Positions 19,903-23,599 of a stretch of 64,000 bases of DNA are shown piece after piece; positions within the stretch are counted from its first letter, which is position 1, and each line of letters begins with the position of its first letter. The position numbers and the translations under genes were made by a program. Source of the stretch: Sphingopyxis sp. YF1. Lineage in GTDB: Bacteria; Pseudomonadota; Alphaproteobacteria; Sphingomonadales; Sphingomonadaceae. The notes beneath the pieces are model-generated. The model did not search any database, had not been told where the DNA came from, and saw only the letters and a program-made list of their open reading frames with translations. Location of the stretch: positions 3,286,001 through 3,350,000 of the forward strand of contig NZ_CP033204.1 of NCBI RefSeq assembly GCF_022701295.1, given 5' to 3'.

Positions 19903-20286
19903 GAGGGGGTCCTTTCACAGCGTCGGAACCCTTTTGCCCGGGTACGGCGATGCGTGCGTCCCGATGCTTGCGTTCAAAACCCGGGGGGCGGCGGACGGCC
20001 GGATCGGCAGCTTCGGGGTGGTGAGCCGCGATGGCCTTGTTTCATCGTCCCGGGTTGGGTGCGGCCGGGCAAGCGCCGCGCGGCATTTCCAAAGTTCAGC
20101 AAAATTCAGCCCTGCGCGCGTCCCCGATCGGGACCTCGCGCCTGCCGGGCAGCGACCGCTTTTATCCGCCAAATGAAGAAGCCGGACGAAGGCTGACACA
20201 GCCGGATAATATAGGAAAGGCCTATTTGCGGGCGATGCCCGCCATGGGGTGGAAAGCGGACGTTCCCGCCTGACTTCGTCATCCCG
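19903..20286. other. Intergenic region, no gene seen
   Basis: About 380 bases between the DUF1203-ada operon start and the mobile element. No open frame here has protein-like composition. It should contain the promoter of the reverse-strand operon, but I could not pick convincing -35/-10 boxes or an Ada box. The right edge (20278-20295) is the left part of a CCCGGACTTGATCCGGG-type palindrome split by the element. Confidence 0.5.
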
Positions 20287-20320
20287 GACTTGATCGGCGA
20301 TTATCCCCTTGAAACAAGTA
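20287..20320 (+). repeat. Left end of IS1595-family element: target duplication plus terminal inverted repeat
   Basis: GACTTGATC (20287-20295) is repeated exactly at 23310-23318. The inner terminal repeat starts GGCGATTATCCCCTT (20296-20310) and continues to ACAAGTA at 20314-20320. Compared with the inverted right end it matches at 21 of 25 positions. IS1595 members make 8-bp duplications; one further shared base explains the 9. Confidence 0.85.
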
Positions 20321-20337
20321 GCCCCTACGGCTATACG
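20309..20337 (+). promoter_or_regulatory. Transposase promoter embedded in the left terminal repeat
   Basis: TTGAAA (20309-20314) and TATACG (20332-20337) with exactly 17 bases between them. The predicted transcription start, about 7 bases on, coincides with the transposase ATG at 20344, so the message would be leaderless. Confidence 0.65.
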
Positions 20338-20343
20338 ATTCGC

Positions 20344-21219
20344 ATGAGCAAAGCACCTACCCTTCGCCAGTTTATGGACCGCTTCCCGACTGAGGATTCG
20401 TGTCTCGACCACCTCATGCGTGTCCGCTTCGGTGACCGGCATGACTGTGGCGGTTGCGGCAAGAGCGCACATTTCTACCGGGTCGCGAAGCGTCGGTCCT
20501 ACGCTTGCGAATATTGCGGGCATCAGGTCTACCCGACGGCTGGCACCCCGTTTGACCGGACCCGAACGCCGCTGCGCGACTGGTTCTTCGTCATGTTCCT
20601 GTTCTGCACGTCGCGCCACGGTGTTGCCGCCAAGGAGGTCGAACGCCAGCTAGGCGTCACCTACAAAACGGCATGGCGTATGTGCCACCAGATCCGGGAA
20701 TACATGGGGTCGCTGGATAGCGACGACCCGCTGGGCGGCATGGGTGAGACGGTTGAGATCGATGAGACGATTGTCGGCGGTTCGGTGTCCGGCAAAGGCA
20801 ATGGCTACATGGGCAACAAGACCGTTGTCGTTGGGATGCTCGAACGTCGCGGCGAACTCATCACCCGCGTTGTCACTAGCCGGACCAAGTTTGCCATGCA
20901 CAACCTGATCCAGCAGCACGTTCTTCCCGGCACCCGTATCAGCACCGACGAAATGGGTGGTTACAAGGACATCGACCGGAAGGGCTACAGCCACATCAAG
21001 GTCAACCACAATCGCGGTCAGTATGCGACCAAGGATGGGGCGGGAGTGAACGCGATTGAGGGCTTCTGGGCGCAGCTAAAGCGCGGGATCAACGGCACCC
21101 ATATCCACGTCAGCCGTCAACATCTTCCGAAGTATCTTGGAGAGTTTGAGTTTCGCTGGAACATGCGTCAGACGCCTCACCTGATGCTTGATCGTCTGCT
21201 GGTTTCTTTTTCCCGGTAA
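20344..21219 (+). CDS. IS1595 family transposase (ISXO2-like)
   Basis: A 291-residue DDE-type transposase. The N-terminal zinc ribbon has Cys35, Cys38 (CGGC), Cys55 and Cys58 (CEYC), followed by the helix-turn-helix GVAAKEVERQLGVTYKTAWRMCHQIRE typical of IS1595. Catalytic acidic residues are visible in VEIDETIVGG and RISTDEMGGY, and the third block NAIEGFWAQLKRGINGTHIHVS shows the N..E...LKR pattern of the family. The C-terminus (FEFRWNMRQ) is complete. The ATG at 20344 is preferred over upstream in-frame starts, which lie inside the terminal repeat; it coincides with the start predicted from the promoter. Length and motifs indicate a functional enzyme. Confidence 0.95.
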   Translation: MSKAPTLRQFMDRFPTEDSCLDHLMRVRFGDRHDCGGCGKSAHFYRVAKRRSYACEYCGHQVYPTAGTPFDRTRTPLRDWFFVMFLFCTSRHGVAAKEVERQLGVTYKTAWRMCHQIREYMGSLDSDDPLGGMGETVEIDETIVGGSVSGKGNGYMGNKTVVVGMLERRGELITRVVTSRTKFAMHNLIQQHVLPGTRISTDEMGGYKDIDRKGYSHIKVNHNRGQYATKDGAGVNAIEGFWAQLKRGINGTHIHVSRQHLPKYLGEFEFRWNMRQTPHLMLDRLLVSFSR

Positions 21220-21546
21220 CAGGGGGACCGCCATGCACCATGGCGGATAGCAGTCGGTCGAAGCGGTCATTGGGATCGTCGGTCATCTGCCAGATATAGC
21301 ATGGATCGGGCTGCGCGGTAACCCTTGCGGTATTCTGATACCTGTGGTATTGAGATACCCGTTATGGGAAAACTGATTTGCCAGACTAGCAACCTTGGTT
21401 TGATGCATGTTGTCCTGCTTCCAACGATCACCGTGGGTGCAATTCGTAACCCTTTTCGGAAGGATGATTTGCTGACACTGTCGGTTGGATTTCAGTGGGG
21501 ATGCTGGAGTCTTGACGCTAGCTGGACCTTCGAGGTCTCCCATAGG
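21220..21546. other. Non-coding or weakly coding stretch inside the mobile element
   Basis: Follows the transposase. It includes a CCGCCATG/CATGGCGG palindrome at about 21230-21245 and the paired dyads at 21329-21359. A forward frame from ATG 21364 to 21597 (78 residues, ending CAKC) has partly protein-like composition, but it overlaps the reverse gene 21547-21729 and has no clear ribosome-binding site; I do not call it. Confidence 0.4.
21329..21359. promoter_or_regulatory. Two tandem operator-like dyads
   Basis: GGTATTCTGATACC (21329-21342) and GGTATTGAGATACC (21346-21359): each is a GGTAT/ATACC dyad and the pair repeats at 17 bases. Such phased dyads often bind a dimeric repressor. No repressor gene is evident in the element. 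Confidence 0.45.
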
Positions 21547-21729
21547 TCACTTCTTCATTCGGTAGTCCGCAATATCCTCCCATGCGCGAAGTGCTGAGGT
21601 TTCCGAACGGCCTTCTTGAATCAGTCTTTCGCCGTCGTACTCGCCGCTCGCTACCCAAACAGTCTTGCGACGCTGATAAGTGCTGACGTCGTGGGGTCTC
21701 CCTCCGACATATACGATATGTACGCCCAT
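21547..21729 (-). CDS. Small hypothetical protein carried by the mobile element
   Basis: Encodes 60 residues, MGVHIVYVGGRPHDVSTYQR at the start and RAWEDIADYRMKK at the end. No family recognised. The ATG at 21729 follows GGGAGGGAG about 10 bases upstream on the reverse strand. The longer open frame upstream is Cys/Arg-rich and does not look like protein. The product is small, charged and soluble; a DNA- or protein-binding accessory role cannot be excluded. It is divergent from the exported protein gene, with about 245 bases between them. Confidence 0.5.
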   Translation of the reverse strand: MGVHIVYVGGRPHDVSTYQRRKTVWVASGEYDGERLIQEGRSETSALRAWEDIADYRMKK

Positions 21730-21973
21730 AAAGCCCGCTCCCTCCCTGTGGGGCTTCTGGCATGGACTTTCGGTCGCCTTCAACCTACATCCGCTCTGTC
21801 GCCTTCGGTCTCGTAAGCCGTCTGCGATGCACTGAACGTGCTGAGCACGGGTCCGCTCTGTCGGGCGGCCCACGAAATAAAACACCCTCACGGGGAATAC
21901 GTGGGGCGTGCTCGCCCGTGCTCGCACGTTACGAACCACCCGGCACCAGCCGGGGCGAGCGGGGGAAATTGTC

Positions 21974-22576
21974 GTGAAAACTATTGCTAAGATCGCATTG
22001 GCCGCAGCGGCCCTTTCGATCACGCCTGTTGCCGTTGCGCAATCGGACCCGATGGCGAAATACCGGAAGAAACTGATGGAGCGCGGCGAGGCCGACTATG
22101 CCCGCGCTGTCACGGTTCTAGACGACGACATGGAGACGATTGCCATCATCAGCACAGAGCGTGCAGGAAGGACCAAGGGCCATATCCCCATGGGTGAGGG
22201 CGACGTCATGTTGCGGGCGGGGATTAACAAGGAGACTGGCGCGACGCTGTTCCAGATCACCGCAAGCATCGGCTATTGGGGTGACTGGCGATTCTATTCC
22301 CTCGGTAGTTATTCGACCCCCGCTGGGCCAGTGGGGGTCACCCCTCGCGTCATCAGTCGGGACGTGATTACCTGCATGGCCGGTTGCAAATATCAGGAGA
22401 CTGTTGCCGTGGATGTCGATATCCAGACCCTTGAACTGATTGCCGCGTCAGGTGAGCCATGGCGTTTCAGATTTCAGGGTCGTGGACCGGTTTGGAACGA
22501 AGAGATGAATCCGGCGGAGGTCAAGGCTCTATTGGCGGCGGTATCGCGCTATAAGGCGGGACGCGGGCTGAGTTAG
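21974..22576 (+). CDS. Passenger gene: exported protein of unknown function
   Basis: Encodes 200 residues from a GTG start that has GGGGGAA about 8 bases upstream and gives a clear signal peptide (MKTIAKIALAAAALSITPVA, then VAQ, cut near 23). The mature protein begins SDPMAKYRKKLMERGEADYARA and contains a beta-rich central part (TLFQITASIGYWGDWRFYSL) and a CMAGC pair that could form a disulphide. No family recognised. It is inside the IS1595 element and ends converging on, and overlapping by four bases, the membrane protein gene. Its presence as cargo with an export signal is the notable point. Confidence 0.65.
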   Translation: MKTIAKIALAAAALSITPVAVAQSDPMAKYRKKLMERGEADYARAVTVLDDDMETIAIISTERAGRTKGHIPMGEGDVMLRAGINKETGATLFQITASIGYWGDWRFYSLGSYSTPAGPVGVTPRVISRDVITCMAGCKYQETVAVDVDIQTLELIAASGEPWRFRFQGRGPVWNEEMNPAEVKALLAAVSRYKAGRGLS

Positions 22577-23247
22577 GGCGGGGACAGGAAACGCGGTTGT
22601 TCGTTGGTCAGTTTTGCATAGTTCACCAGCGCGTCTCGGCTGACGGTCGAATATTCGTCCCGACCGACCAGATGAAAAGTCAGCGCGAGACGGGGGTTCT
22701 TGTCACGTGAGAACGGCTCTAAAACAGCCAGCTTTCCCGTTTTCACGTCCCGCCCCATGCGCTCAGCCAATGCCTTAACTACGCCCGGAGCATTGGCCGG
22801 GTAATCTTTGGCTGGTAGCTTTCCGACCCACAAATACGCCGCCTGCCACACTTTCATCTGGTCGACATTCCGCCAGTATTCCAATTCTTCGTCTGTTGCT
22901 TGGGTTTCCTTGCGATAACGAGATGGACGGGCGAAGAATTGATCCGGCGCTATCGGCGCGTACTTCGCAGGGGCTGTCGTCTGAGTTTCTCGTGTCGGTG
23001 GTCGCCGCACCAGATATAGGACTGCACCATACAGGACGCAGAACGTCAGAAGCCAAAGCACGATCCCCAAGTCGCCCCCGGAAACATGGGCTTTGAGGAA
23101 ATCCCCCATACTGTTGGCGGCGGCGTCTAGCACACCCCACCTGTCAATGACCTTTGTGACGAAATAGCCAATTCCACCTGTGATCGGAATGGCGGCAACC
23201 GAAACAAATTTGTCCCTTTTAGCTTTCGTTTTTGATAGTTCCCCCAT
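22573..23247 (-). CDS. Passenger gene: membrane protein of unknown function
   Basis: Encodes 224 residues with two predicted membrane segments near the N-terminus, at about 16-35 (VSVAAIPITGGIGYFVTKVI) and 61-79 (GIVLWLLTFCVLYGAVLYLV), then a soluble region of about 140 residues with Trp/Tyr-rich stretches (EELEYWRNVDQMKVWQAAYLWVG). The C-terminal part (FSRDKNPRLALTFHLVGRDEYSTVSRDALVNYAKL) is hydrophilic. No known family. The layout recalls small cargo membrane proteins but gives no function. Its start lies 38 bases inside the right terminal repeat, so transcription probably begins within or next to the repeat. Confidence 0.65.
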   Translation of the reverse strand: MGELSKTKAKRDKFVSVAAIPITGGIGYFVTKVIDRWGVLDAAANSMGDFLKAHVSGGDLGIVLWLLTFCVLYGAVLYLVRRPPTRETQTTAPAKYAPIAPDQFFARPSRYRKETQATDEELEYWRNVDQMKVWQAAYLWVGKLPAKDYPANAPGVVKALAERMGRDVKTGKLAVLEPFSRDKNPRLALTFHLVGRDEYSTVSRDALVNYAKLTNEQPRFLSPP

Positions 23248-23284
23248 CCGGCCCGCATACCAGCGGTTGTGGCCTTAGTCACGA

Positions 23285-23318
23285 TACTTGTCCGAAGGGG
23301 ATAATTGCCGACTTGATC
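23285..23318 (-). repeat. Right end of IS1595-family element: terminal inverted repeat plus target duplication
   Basis: TACTTGT (23285-23291) and AAGGGGATAATTGCC (23295-23309) are the inverted counterpart of the left end, followed by the direct repeat GACTTGATC (23310-23318). Beyond it GGGATCC continues the interrupted palindrome. Confidence 0.85.
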
Positions 23319-23336
23319 CGGGATCCATAGCAGTCT

Positions 23337-23377
23337 CGAAGTCATGGACCCCGGATCAAGTCCGGGGTGACGACGAA
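23337..23377. repeat. Palindrome, family D (CCCCGGATCAAGTCCGGGG type)
   Basis: Related to the sequence into which the neighbouring element inserted: restoring the target by removing the element and one duplicate gives CCCGGACTTGATCCGGG, the inverse of the core here. The two units form an inverted pair around the CATAGCAGTCTCGAAGTCATG linker. Confidence 0.65.
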
Positions 23378-23405
23378 AGACAGACCCGCAGCCTGTCGAA
23401 GCGGT

Positions 23406-23562
23406 CCCATTCCTCCCTGTCGCGCAGCGATGGGGAGGTGGCAGTGCGAAGCGCTGACGGAGGGGCCGACGCCGTCAAGCGTCGCACGGCCTTTCAGCCC
23501 CTCCACCACTCGCTGCGCGAGCGGTCCCCCTCCCCATGGCCTGCGGCCACAGGGAGGATTTA
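23406..23562. repeat. Long intergenic inverted repeat, family E
   Basis: Begins CATTCCTCCCTGTCGCGCAG and ends in CTGCGGCCACAGGGAGG, with GGGGAGG/CCTCCCC arms and an inner GAAGCGCTGACGGAGGGG versus CCCCTCCACCACTCGC pair. It contains no gene. This is another dispersed-element type in the 650-base gene-free space between the IS element and the DUF2306 gene. Confidence 0.55.
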
Positions 23563-23599
23563 TGTCTGCAACCGGTCGATTGCTGCCATGAGTGTCGCA

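What the first reader, a model, noticed from the sequence alone, without database searches (positions are those of the whole stretch)
20287..23318. Complete IS1595-family element carrying unfamiliar passenger genes
Terminal inverted repeats (25 bp, 21 matching), an exact flanking direct repeat, an intact ISXO2-like transposase and three further genes make a 3.0-kb transposable unit. The cargo (exported 200-residue protein, 224-residue membrane protein, 60-residue protein) matches no family I know. Exported plus membrane cargo overlapping tail to tail suggests they act together, perhaps at the envelope. Cargo-bearing IS1595 elements are known, but these cargo types I cannot place.
Basis: partly seen in the sequence, partly recalled or inferred. 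Interest (0 to 1): 0.8.

Follow-up and report, generated by a model that had tools for sequence, protein, structure and literature searches.

The report
Jumping gene with swappable membrane cargo
This is a complete small transposon that carries uncharacterised envelope-protein genes; its relatives keep the same ends, the same transposase and a small overlooked gene on the opposite strand but carry different, mostly membrane-anchored cargo genes, so it looks like a standard vehicle for shuffling such genes.

Summary
The element is 20296-23309 (3014 bp): inverted ends matching at 21 of 25 bases, a 9-bp direct repeat, an intact IS1595-family transposase. Six uninterrupted paralogous copies of its target, a dispersed palindromic repeat, confirm the insertion. 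It is a cargo-bearing 'transporter IS', a known kind.

The reading needs extending. In 39 complete elements (window included) the space behind the transposase is never empty; the longest cargo ORF is antisense in 36 and has an early membrane segment in 30. At shared chromosomal sites (L031/L036; L037/L042) the element stayed while its cargo was replaced.

The exported protein has an IalB-like predicted fold and follows an RNA leader related to sRNA-Xcc1 with two conserved, mutually exclusive helices.

That exported and membrane genes act together is not supported. Envelope-level defence or exclusion is the favoured but unproven cargo role. New variant of a known kind.

The parts
20287..20295 (.). 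target-site duplication, left copy GACTTGATC (9 bp)
20296..20320 (+). left terminal inverted repeat
   Evidence: 21 of 25 matching; similar ends around relatives
20344..21219 (+). IS1595-family transposase, 291 aa, two CxxC pairs, D140/D202/E239 present (active-site motif recalled)
   Evidence: Pfam Zn_ribbon_IS1595 and DDE_Tnp_IS1595, NF033547 5.8e-56, motif positions
21110..21286 (-). small antisense gene, 58 aa, RFDRLLSAM motif; overlaps the transposase 3' end by 110 nt
21547..21729 (-). 60-aa ORF of unknown kind (coding status unproven)
   Evidence: no family hit above noise; no clear relative in L003-L051
21843..21973 (+). RNA leader of the exported gene; core 21860-21952 matches RF02221 sRNA-Xcc1 below gathering score; arms A 21843-21851, B 21915-21923, A' 21957-21965
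21974..22576 (+). exported 200-aa protein (GTG start, signal peptide by eye), IalB-like predicted fold
22573..23247 (-). membrane-anchored 224-aa cargo protein; start 62 bp inside the right end
23285..23309 (-). right terminal inverted repeat
23310..23318 (.). target-site duplication, right copy GACTTGATC
20276..23373 (.). host palindromic repeat interrupted by the element (host parts 20276-20295 and 23310-23373)
   Evidence: inverted repeats I3 and I4; 44 sites of the 17-mer, up to 2 mismatches, in the genome

Best explanation
The element is a cargo-bearing IS1595-family insertion sequence of a Sphingopyxis-group bacterium. SHOWN by sequence comparison: the transposase is intact and bracketed by its ends; the unit inserted into the loop of a dispersed palindromic repeat and duplicated 9 bp. 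The constant part of this element lineage is left end, transposase and a small antisense gene overlapping the transposase 3' end. The rest, up to about the last 25-50 bp, is a slot whose content differs between elements and, at two chromosomal sites shared by related bacteria, was replaced while the element stayed in place. The slot is mostly read inward from the right end, against the transposase, and mostly holds a protein with N-terminal membrane segments whose membrane and soluble parts are exchanged separately. In most relatives scored, the cargo stop codon overlaps the start of the small gene. In the window the slot also holds a second module, an RNA leader plus an exported IalB-like protein, and a 60-aa ORF. 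INFERRED: the small protein, being constant while cargo changes, serves the element itself, most likely by restraining or timing transposition, and is made together with the cargo (translational coupling). The cargo gives the host an envelope-level advantage, most likely against phage or other invading DNA. The leader switches the exported gene on and off by letting arm B pair either with arm A or with arm A', just upstream of the start codon. Rough odds: transposon as described 0.97; small gene is a real protein gene 0.9; leader is a cis-acting switch 0.6; cargo role in defence or exclusion 0.35.
For: Unit. Slot: of 39 complete elements with distinct sequences (window included) all have 704-2090 bp behind the transposase match; the longest cargo ORF is antisense in 36 of 39; a Kyte-Doolittle membrane segment begins within the first 110 residues in 30 of 39, against 15 of 103 flanking ORFs of 130-380 aa. 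In-place replacement: L031 and L036 share both flanks (about 81% over 3.3 kb left and 4.0 kb right), left end, transposase (79.5%) and the last 30 bp, but nothing between 59 nt past the transposase match and those 30 bp; their cargo proteins do not match. L037 and L042 show the same with weaker flanks (70-79%), L062 probably too. In the other close pairs listed, similarity likewise ends between 55 nt before and 59 nt after the end of the transposase match. Modularity: L034/L042 and L039/L040 share only the N-terminal part; L031/L033, L043/L044 and window/P0005 only the C-terminal part (P0005 and P0006 have another N-terminus). Small gene: overlapping antisense ORF with the motif in 29 of 32 examined; motif found in 31 of 31 loci given; entropies 0.65, 0.48 and 1.23 at codon positions 1, 2 and 3; amino-acid entropy 0.72 against a column-shuffle mean of 1.06, 0 of 1000 as low; apart from the transposase in L038 and L059. 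Coupling: cargo stop overlaps the small-gene start in 18 of 21 elements scored, by 1-20 nt in 17. Leader: helix A:B 99.1% of cells paired, 6 of 9 pairs with changes on both sides; helix B:A' 94.3%, 5 of 9; 0 of 500 shuffles reach either value or the covariation score. Defence hint in relatives only: PDC-S42 matches in 3 of 23 cargo proteins scanned, two of them L069 and L076; M78 peptidase 1.9e-20 and capP 1.7e-25 in L065.
Against: No defence, toxin or other functional model hits any window cargo; of the 23 cargo proteins of relatives scanned (23 of 39, window included) few hit anything, and the defence-type hits lie in the distant transposase clade. The membrane protein could not be modelled (pLDDT 43). 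The element is single-copy here, so movement is inferred from structure only. In the window the small gene is not next to a cargo stop (1286 nt from the membrane gene) and has no clear ribosome-binding site by eye, so co-expression there is doubtful. The coupling count leaves out four elements with a measured gap (window 1286, L027 364, L029 154, L036 144 nt); with them it is 18 of 25. Column shuffles ignore relatedness, and the best other reading frame of the small-gene core (sense direction) is only moderately worse (amino-acid entropy 1.33 with 1 stop, against 1.07 with none over the same 24 nt). For both leader helices the number of pair types does not stand out (162 and 79 of 500 shuffles), and the window keeps arm A' only in part (GAGCGGGGG). 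Cargo strand is not uniform (L027, L029, L036 have their longest ORF in sense). Promoter scan found nothing above shuffles. 39 elements are not 39 independent insertions: L031/L036 and L037/L042/L062 look inherited.
Confidence: 0.77

Rival explanations
1. The cargo is neutral or selfish ballast: genes caught by chance between an end and a transposase, kept because nothing removes them.
For: Single copy in the genome; cargo sequences mostly unrelated (20 of 861 possible pairs of 42 proteins match at E 0.05 or better in blastp); no functional hits for window cargo.
Against: Random capture does not explain the prevailing orientation (36 of 39), the membrane bias (30 of 39 against 15 of 103), repeated replacement rather than loss at shared sites, or the overlap with the small gene (18 of 21).
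Confidence: 0.2
2. Cargo and small gene form an addiction pair: a membrane-active toxin whose constant partner neutralises it and so protects the element from loss, as toxin-antitoxin pairs may do in Tn3 transposons.
For: Coupled gene order; TA pairs as passengers of Tn3 transposons, with a section headed as a unique position (PMC7157771, abstract and section list seen).
Against: One constant small protein would have to neutralise many unrelated cargo proteins; L029 and L036 carry cargo in the other orientation; no TA family hit among proteins scanned, apart from the M78/CapP-like peptidase of L065.
Confidence: 0.12
3. The antisense ORF is not a gene; the segment past the transposase stop is conserved as DNA or antisense RNA that controls the transposase.
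For: Small RNAs regulate the transposase of ISPpu9 (start of abstract of PMC8450116 seen in the listing); no ATG start was found in L034, L050, L054; half of the ORF overlaps the transposase, where its conservation is forced.
Against: Third codon positions vary most; leucine and arginine codons are swapped synonymously; the ORF exists apart from the transposase in L038 and L059; no stop in the core in 31 of 31 loci.
Confidence: 0.08
4. The window element is a fusion of two mobile modules: a standard element (transposase, small gene, membrane cargo) into whose slot an integron-cassette-like or second-IS module (leader, exported gene) was inserted. This refines rather than opposes the best explanation.
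For: Leader plus gene occurs apart from these elements in other genomes; the leader lies inside another IS1595-type element in L154 with 22 of 22 matching ends and an 8-bp repeat (the finder required the repeat); sRNA-Xcc1 is reported on integron cassettes of Xanthomonas (PMC12444791, passages); exported-protein homologues elsewhere lack the leader (0 of 16 loci given).
Against: No inner ends were seen, and attC-like sites were not searched for.
Confidence: 0.6

Closest known systems
IS1595-family transporter IS (tIS)
   Same: Zinc ribbon and DDE_Tnp_IS1595 transposase, inverted ends, 8- to 9-bp target duplication, passenger genes. The term and its link to IS1595 are seen in passages of PMC3129680 and PMC7986276 that cite Siguier et al. 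2009 (that paper itself not seen).
   Different: Cargo here follows a rule (slot, orientation, membrane anchor) and comes with a constant overlapping antisense gene; I saw neither described in the listings and passages, which do not cover most subscription journals.
Tn3-family transposons with toxin-antitoxin passengers (PMC7157771; abstract and section list seen)
   Same: Small variable passenger modules in a fixed position next to the transposition genes.
   Different: Other transposase family; passengers there are recognised TA pairs, here mostly membrane-anchored proteins without TA hits.
IS elements that target REP palindromes (PMC1525189, ISPpu9 PMC8450116; listing and start of abstracts seen)
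   Same: Insertion into dispersed extragenic palindromes.
   Different: ISPpu9 is, as I recall, of another family; here REP-like targeting goes with a 9-bp instead of 8-bp duplication among related IS1595 elements.
IalB, invasion-associated protein B (PDB 3dtd)
   Different: 5% identity, no Pfam hit; no function follows from this.
sRNA-Xcc1 (RF02221)
   Same: Full-length match 1-87 of 87, E 8e-6; association with mobile cassettes and position upstream of a gene (symE) in Xanthomonas integrons (PMC12444791, passages).
   Different: 44.2 bits, below the gathering score of 53; the cited title calls it a trans-acting sRNA, here it is a leader shortly before exported-protein genes.

Membership tests
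IS1595 family | transposase with IS1595 zinc ribbon and DDE domain | tested here: met
   both Pfam domains and NF033547 above cut-off
IS1595 family | terminal inverted repeats | tested here: met
   21 of 25; relatives 17-24 of 25 (which required at least 14)
IS1595 family | 8-bp target duplication (usual, per passage of PMC8101967) | tested here: met
   8 bp in most relatives; 9 bp in the window and six relatives, a deviation; the same passage gives 8 or 9 bp for the related Merlin elements
IS1595 family, ISfinder subgroup | clustering with a named reference element | not testable with these tools
   ISfinder not available
transporter IS (tIS) | IS with passenger genes unrelated to transposition between its own ends | tested here: met
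   passenger ORFs inside 20296-23309
IalB family | sequence match to the family profile | tested here: not met
   no Pfam match up to E 1
IalB family | fold of IalB | tested here: inconclusive
sRNA-Xcc1 (RF02221) | score at or above gathering threshold 53 | tested here: not met
   44.2 bits; nine of eleven other loci 38-47 bits, L141 and L143 not listed at E 0.01
known anti-phage defence system | match of window proteins to a PADLOC model | tested here: not met
   none of 4 proteins; none for the small antisense protein
REP element (target) | palindromic, extragenic, many dispersed copies | tested here: met
   extragenic position seen for the window copy only
REP element (target) | spread by a RAYT transposase | not tested
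   no search made

The most novel reading that the evidence does not exclude
These elements are a dedicated mobile platform for envelope defence or exclusion proteins: one transposase, one constant overprinted antisense protein acting as regulator or adaptor, and a slot in which membrane anchors and intracellular sensor or effector domains are recombined and exchanged in place, with an RNA switch added for exported cargo.
Probability: 0.25. Interest if true: 0.85.

Novelty: new variant of a known kind. Interest (0 to 1): 0.62.

Why it matters
IS elements are usually treated as carriers of a transposase only, and their passengers as accidents. Here an IS1595 lineage never lacks a passenger in the 39 elements seen, follows one layout, swaps cargo in place, and carries a conserved gene printed on the opposite strand of its transposase; the gene tables of the two plasmid records looked at do not list it (L132, L133; such tables are incomplete). 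If the cargo proves to be defence or exclusion, these small elements would be a new source of such genes. The two-helix leader gives a testable function for an RNA family described as a trans-acting sRNA.

Tried and rejected

Rows dropped: L032 from the 39 elements, because its paired end looked unrelated; L026, L035, L049, L054, L059, L063, L072-L075, L077 and L079 gave no complete element; L053, L055, L057, L058 were duplicates. In L071 the transposase match covers only residues 1-179. In 'longest ORF' is a proxy and is probably the wrong ORF in a few elements (L027, L067, L070). The direct repeat was a search condition, so only searches test it. Seven weaker leader matches (L145-L151) were left out of the leader alignment. 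L075, with the second type of small gene visible, was not given to the alignment; L071 and loci lacking the transposase end were not examined for it. The 9-bp group as a whole has weak tree support (68/5); five of its six rows lie in a supported group of seven (100/93). Whether the two types of small gene (RFDxLLxAM, and LDQFIAE...SMAxKSK in the distant clade) are one family was not settled.
Full report
CHECK. The element reads as described: 25-bp ends with 21 matches and a 9-bp direct repeat, so the element is 20296-23309. The transposase is intact. The target is a palindromic repeat; the 17-mer GACTTGATCCGGGATCC occurs 44 times with up to 2 mismatches in the 4.37-Mb genome, control 0. The joined flanks align, with a single GACTTGATC, to uninterrupted copies at L104, L105, L107, L108, L109 and L111 over 170-172 bases at 87-92%, and to L106 over 81 bases at 84%. 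These are paralogous empty sites. The transposase occurs once in the genome. The genome falls in the same genus group as Sphingopyxis records: three genus genomes carry elements identical to those of L031, L036 and L050, which are Sphingopyxis records.

RELATIVES. A scan of genome contigs with the transposase gave 26 relatives; of 397 family genomes 43, own included, had a match at E 1e-60 or better (30 loci fetched). Picking by end sequence only, 14 of 15 elements (window included) have an exact 8- or 9-bp repeat, the fifteenth 7 of 8; with a looser end pattern 8 of the 12 loci given yielded a pair and all 8 have one. A pair finder that requires the repeat extended this. After removing four duplicates and L032, 39 complete elements remain, L048 and the window included.

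THE SLOT. All 39 carry 704-2090 bp behind the transposase match. The longest ORF there is antisense in 36 of 39. A hydrophobic segment starts within 110 residues in 30 of 39, against 15 of 103 control ORFs from the flanks (Fisher p 4e-12). Of the 36 antisense starts 31 lie 1-98 bp from the right end (median 63), the other five 141-652 bp. Near relatives share DNA from the left end to a point close to the transposase stop (55 nt before to 59 nt after the end of the match in the close-clade pairs listed; up to about 138 nt after in the distant clade); a further match near the right end shows in only 3 of the listed pairs, at or within 75 bp of that end.

CARGO REPLACED IN PLACE. L031 and L036, two Sphingopyxis records, hold the element at the same chromosomal site: flanks match at about 81% over 3.3 kb on the left and 4.0 kb on the right. 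The match runs through the left end and transposase, stops 54-59 nt past the transposase match, and resumes 31 bp before the right end. Between these points nothing matches, and the cargo proteins are unrelated. L037 and L042, Erythrobacter records, show the same with more diverged flanks, and L062 probably shares their site. Flank and transposase identity are alike in L031/L036 (81% and 79.5%), so one old insertion with a later exchange of cargo is likelier than two insertions at one site. L050, third in that transposase clade, lies elsewhere.

MODULAR CARGO. The window protein shares its C-terminal half with P0005 (52%) and P0006 (36%), which have a different N-terminal membrane part. Other pairs share only the N-terminal or only the C-terminal part. 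The profile search for the window protein gave 3 proteins at E 0.01, itself included, among 4148 candidates drawn from 5.8 billion.

THE ANTISENSE GENE. Just past the transposase stop lies, on the other strand, a conserved motif, mostly [RK]FDxLLxAM. It starts a 52-72-aa ORF whose tail overlaps the transposase (window 21110-21286, 58 aa). The ORF with this motif was found overlapping the stop in 29 of 32 elements examined. L038 and L059 carry it away from the transposase, and L045 has the second type. In the nine-codon core of 31 loci the third codon position is the most variable (entropy 1.23 against 0.65 and 0.48), and the amino-acid entropy is below all 1000 column shuffles; the next best of the six frames, a sense frame, has 1.33 against 1.07 over the same 24 nt. 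In the more distant clade a different or diverged ORF (LDQFIAE...SMAxKSKEAP) occupies the same place in 15 of 15 loci aligned, and similar ORFs do in two plasmid elements, of Sulfitobacter and a Geminicoccaceae bacterium, not listed in the gene tables of those records. Where the cargo is antisense and an ATG start could be set, the cargo stop overlaps the small-gene start in 18 of 21, by 1-20 nt in 17. Left out are the window, L027, L029 and L036 (gaps 144-1286 nt; with them 18 of 25), L026 (contig end) and L034, L050 and L054 (no ATG). Such overlap is the usual mark of translational coupling. In the window the membrane gene is 1286 nt away because the other module lies between.

TARGET CHOICE. 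All seven elements with a 9-bp repeat (window, L027, L028, L029, L034, L052, L071) sit in palindromes of the type CCCTGAACTTGTTTCAGGG or CCCGGACTTGATCCGGG, read on either strand. No two of them share both flanks, so they count as separate insertions. On the transposase tree the six included form one side of a branch, weakly supported; five lie in a group with support 100/93.

FUNCTION. For window cargo nothing points to a function by sequence. In relatives, cargo includes a candidate defence family (PDC-S42; L069, L076 and one more of 23), an M78 peptidase with a CapP match next to a membrane protein (L065) and DUF7946/7947. The constant small gene most likely serves the element.

NOVELTY. Passenger-carrying IS1595 elements are known (passages of PMC3129680 and PMC7986276). 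I saw no description of the slot rule or the antisense gene in ten literature searches (listings, and passages of some papers), which miss most subscription papers; the founding paper of the family was not seen. Hence: new variant of a known kind. The confidence of the best explanation was raised from 0.75 to 0.77 because.

Noticed in passing
window 21843-21973: RNA leader related to sRNA-Xcc1 with two mutually exclusive covarying helices, also found shortly before small exported, lipoprotein or membrane genes in other family genomes.
   Followed up: partly
L038:7152-7313 (-) and L059, 2884-3042 of its reverse complement: The small RFDxLLxAM gene exists there apart from the transposase, with a different C-terminus.
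   Followed up: yes
L065:403-1402: Cargo pair of a membrane protein and an M78 (IrrE/CapP-like) peptidase in a related element.
   Followed up: partly
L154:908-3805: A second IS1595-type element (transposase 32% identical, 22 of 22 matching ends, 8-bp repeat CAAAAAAG) carrying the same leader.
   Followed up: partly
L152 and L153: IS1595-like transposase followed by a 109-112-aa ORF in sense that overlaps its 3' end and looks alike in both, convergent with an exported gene behind the leader.
   Followed up: no
L048, L060, L064, L067: Elements from different genomes share left-flank sequence (600-770 bases): a third shared site or a preferred neighbourhood.
   Followed up: no
L048:6603-9160: Transposase interrupted by ORFs that look by eye like an IS21-type IstA/IstB pair; element ends still recognisable.
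   Followed up: no
window 23319-23590: Composite dispersed repeat next to the element, with copies at 88-91% identity elsewhere in the genome.
   Followed up: no
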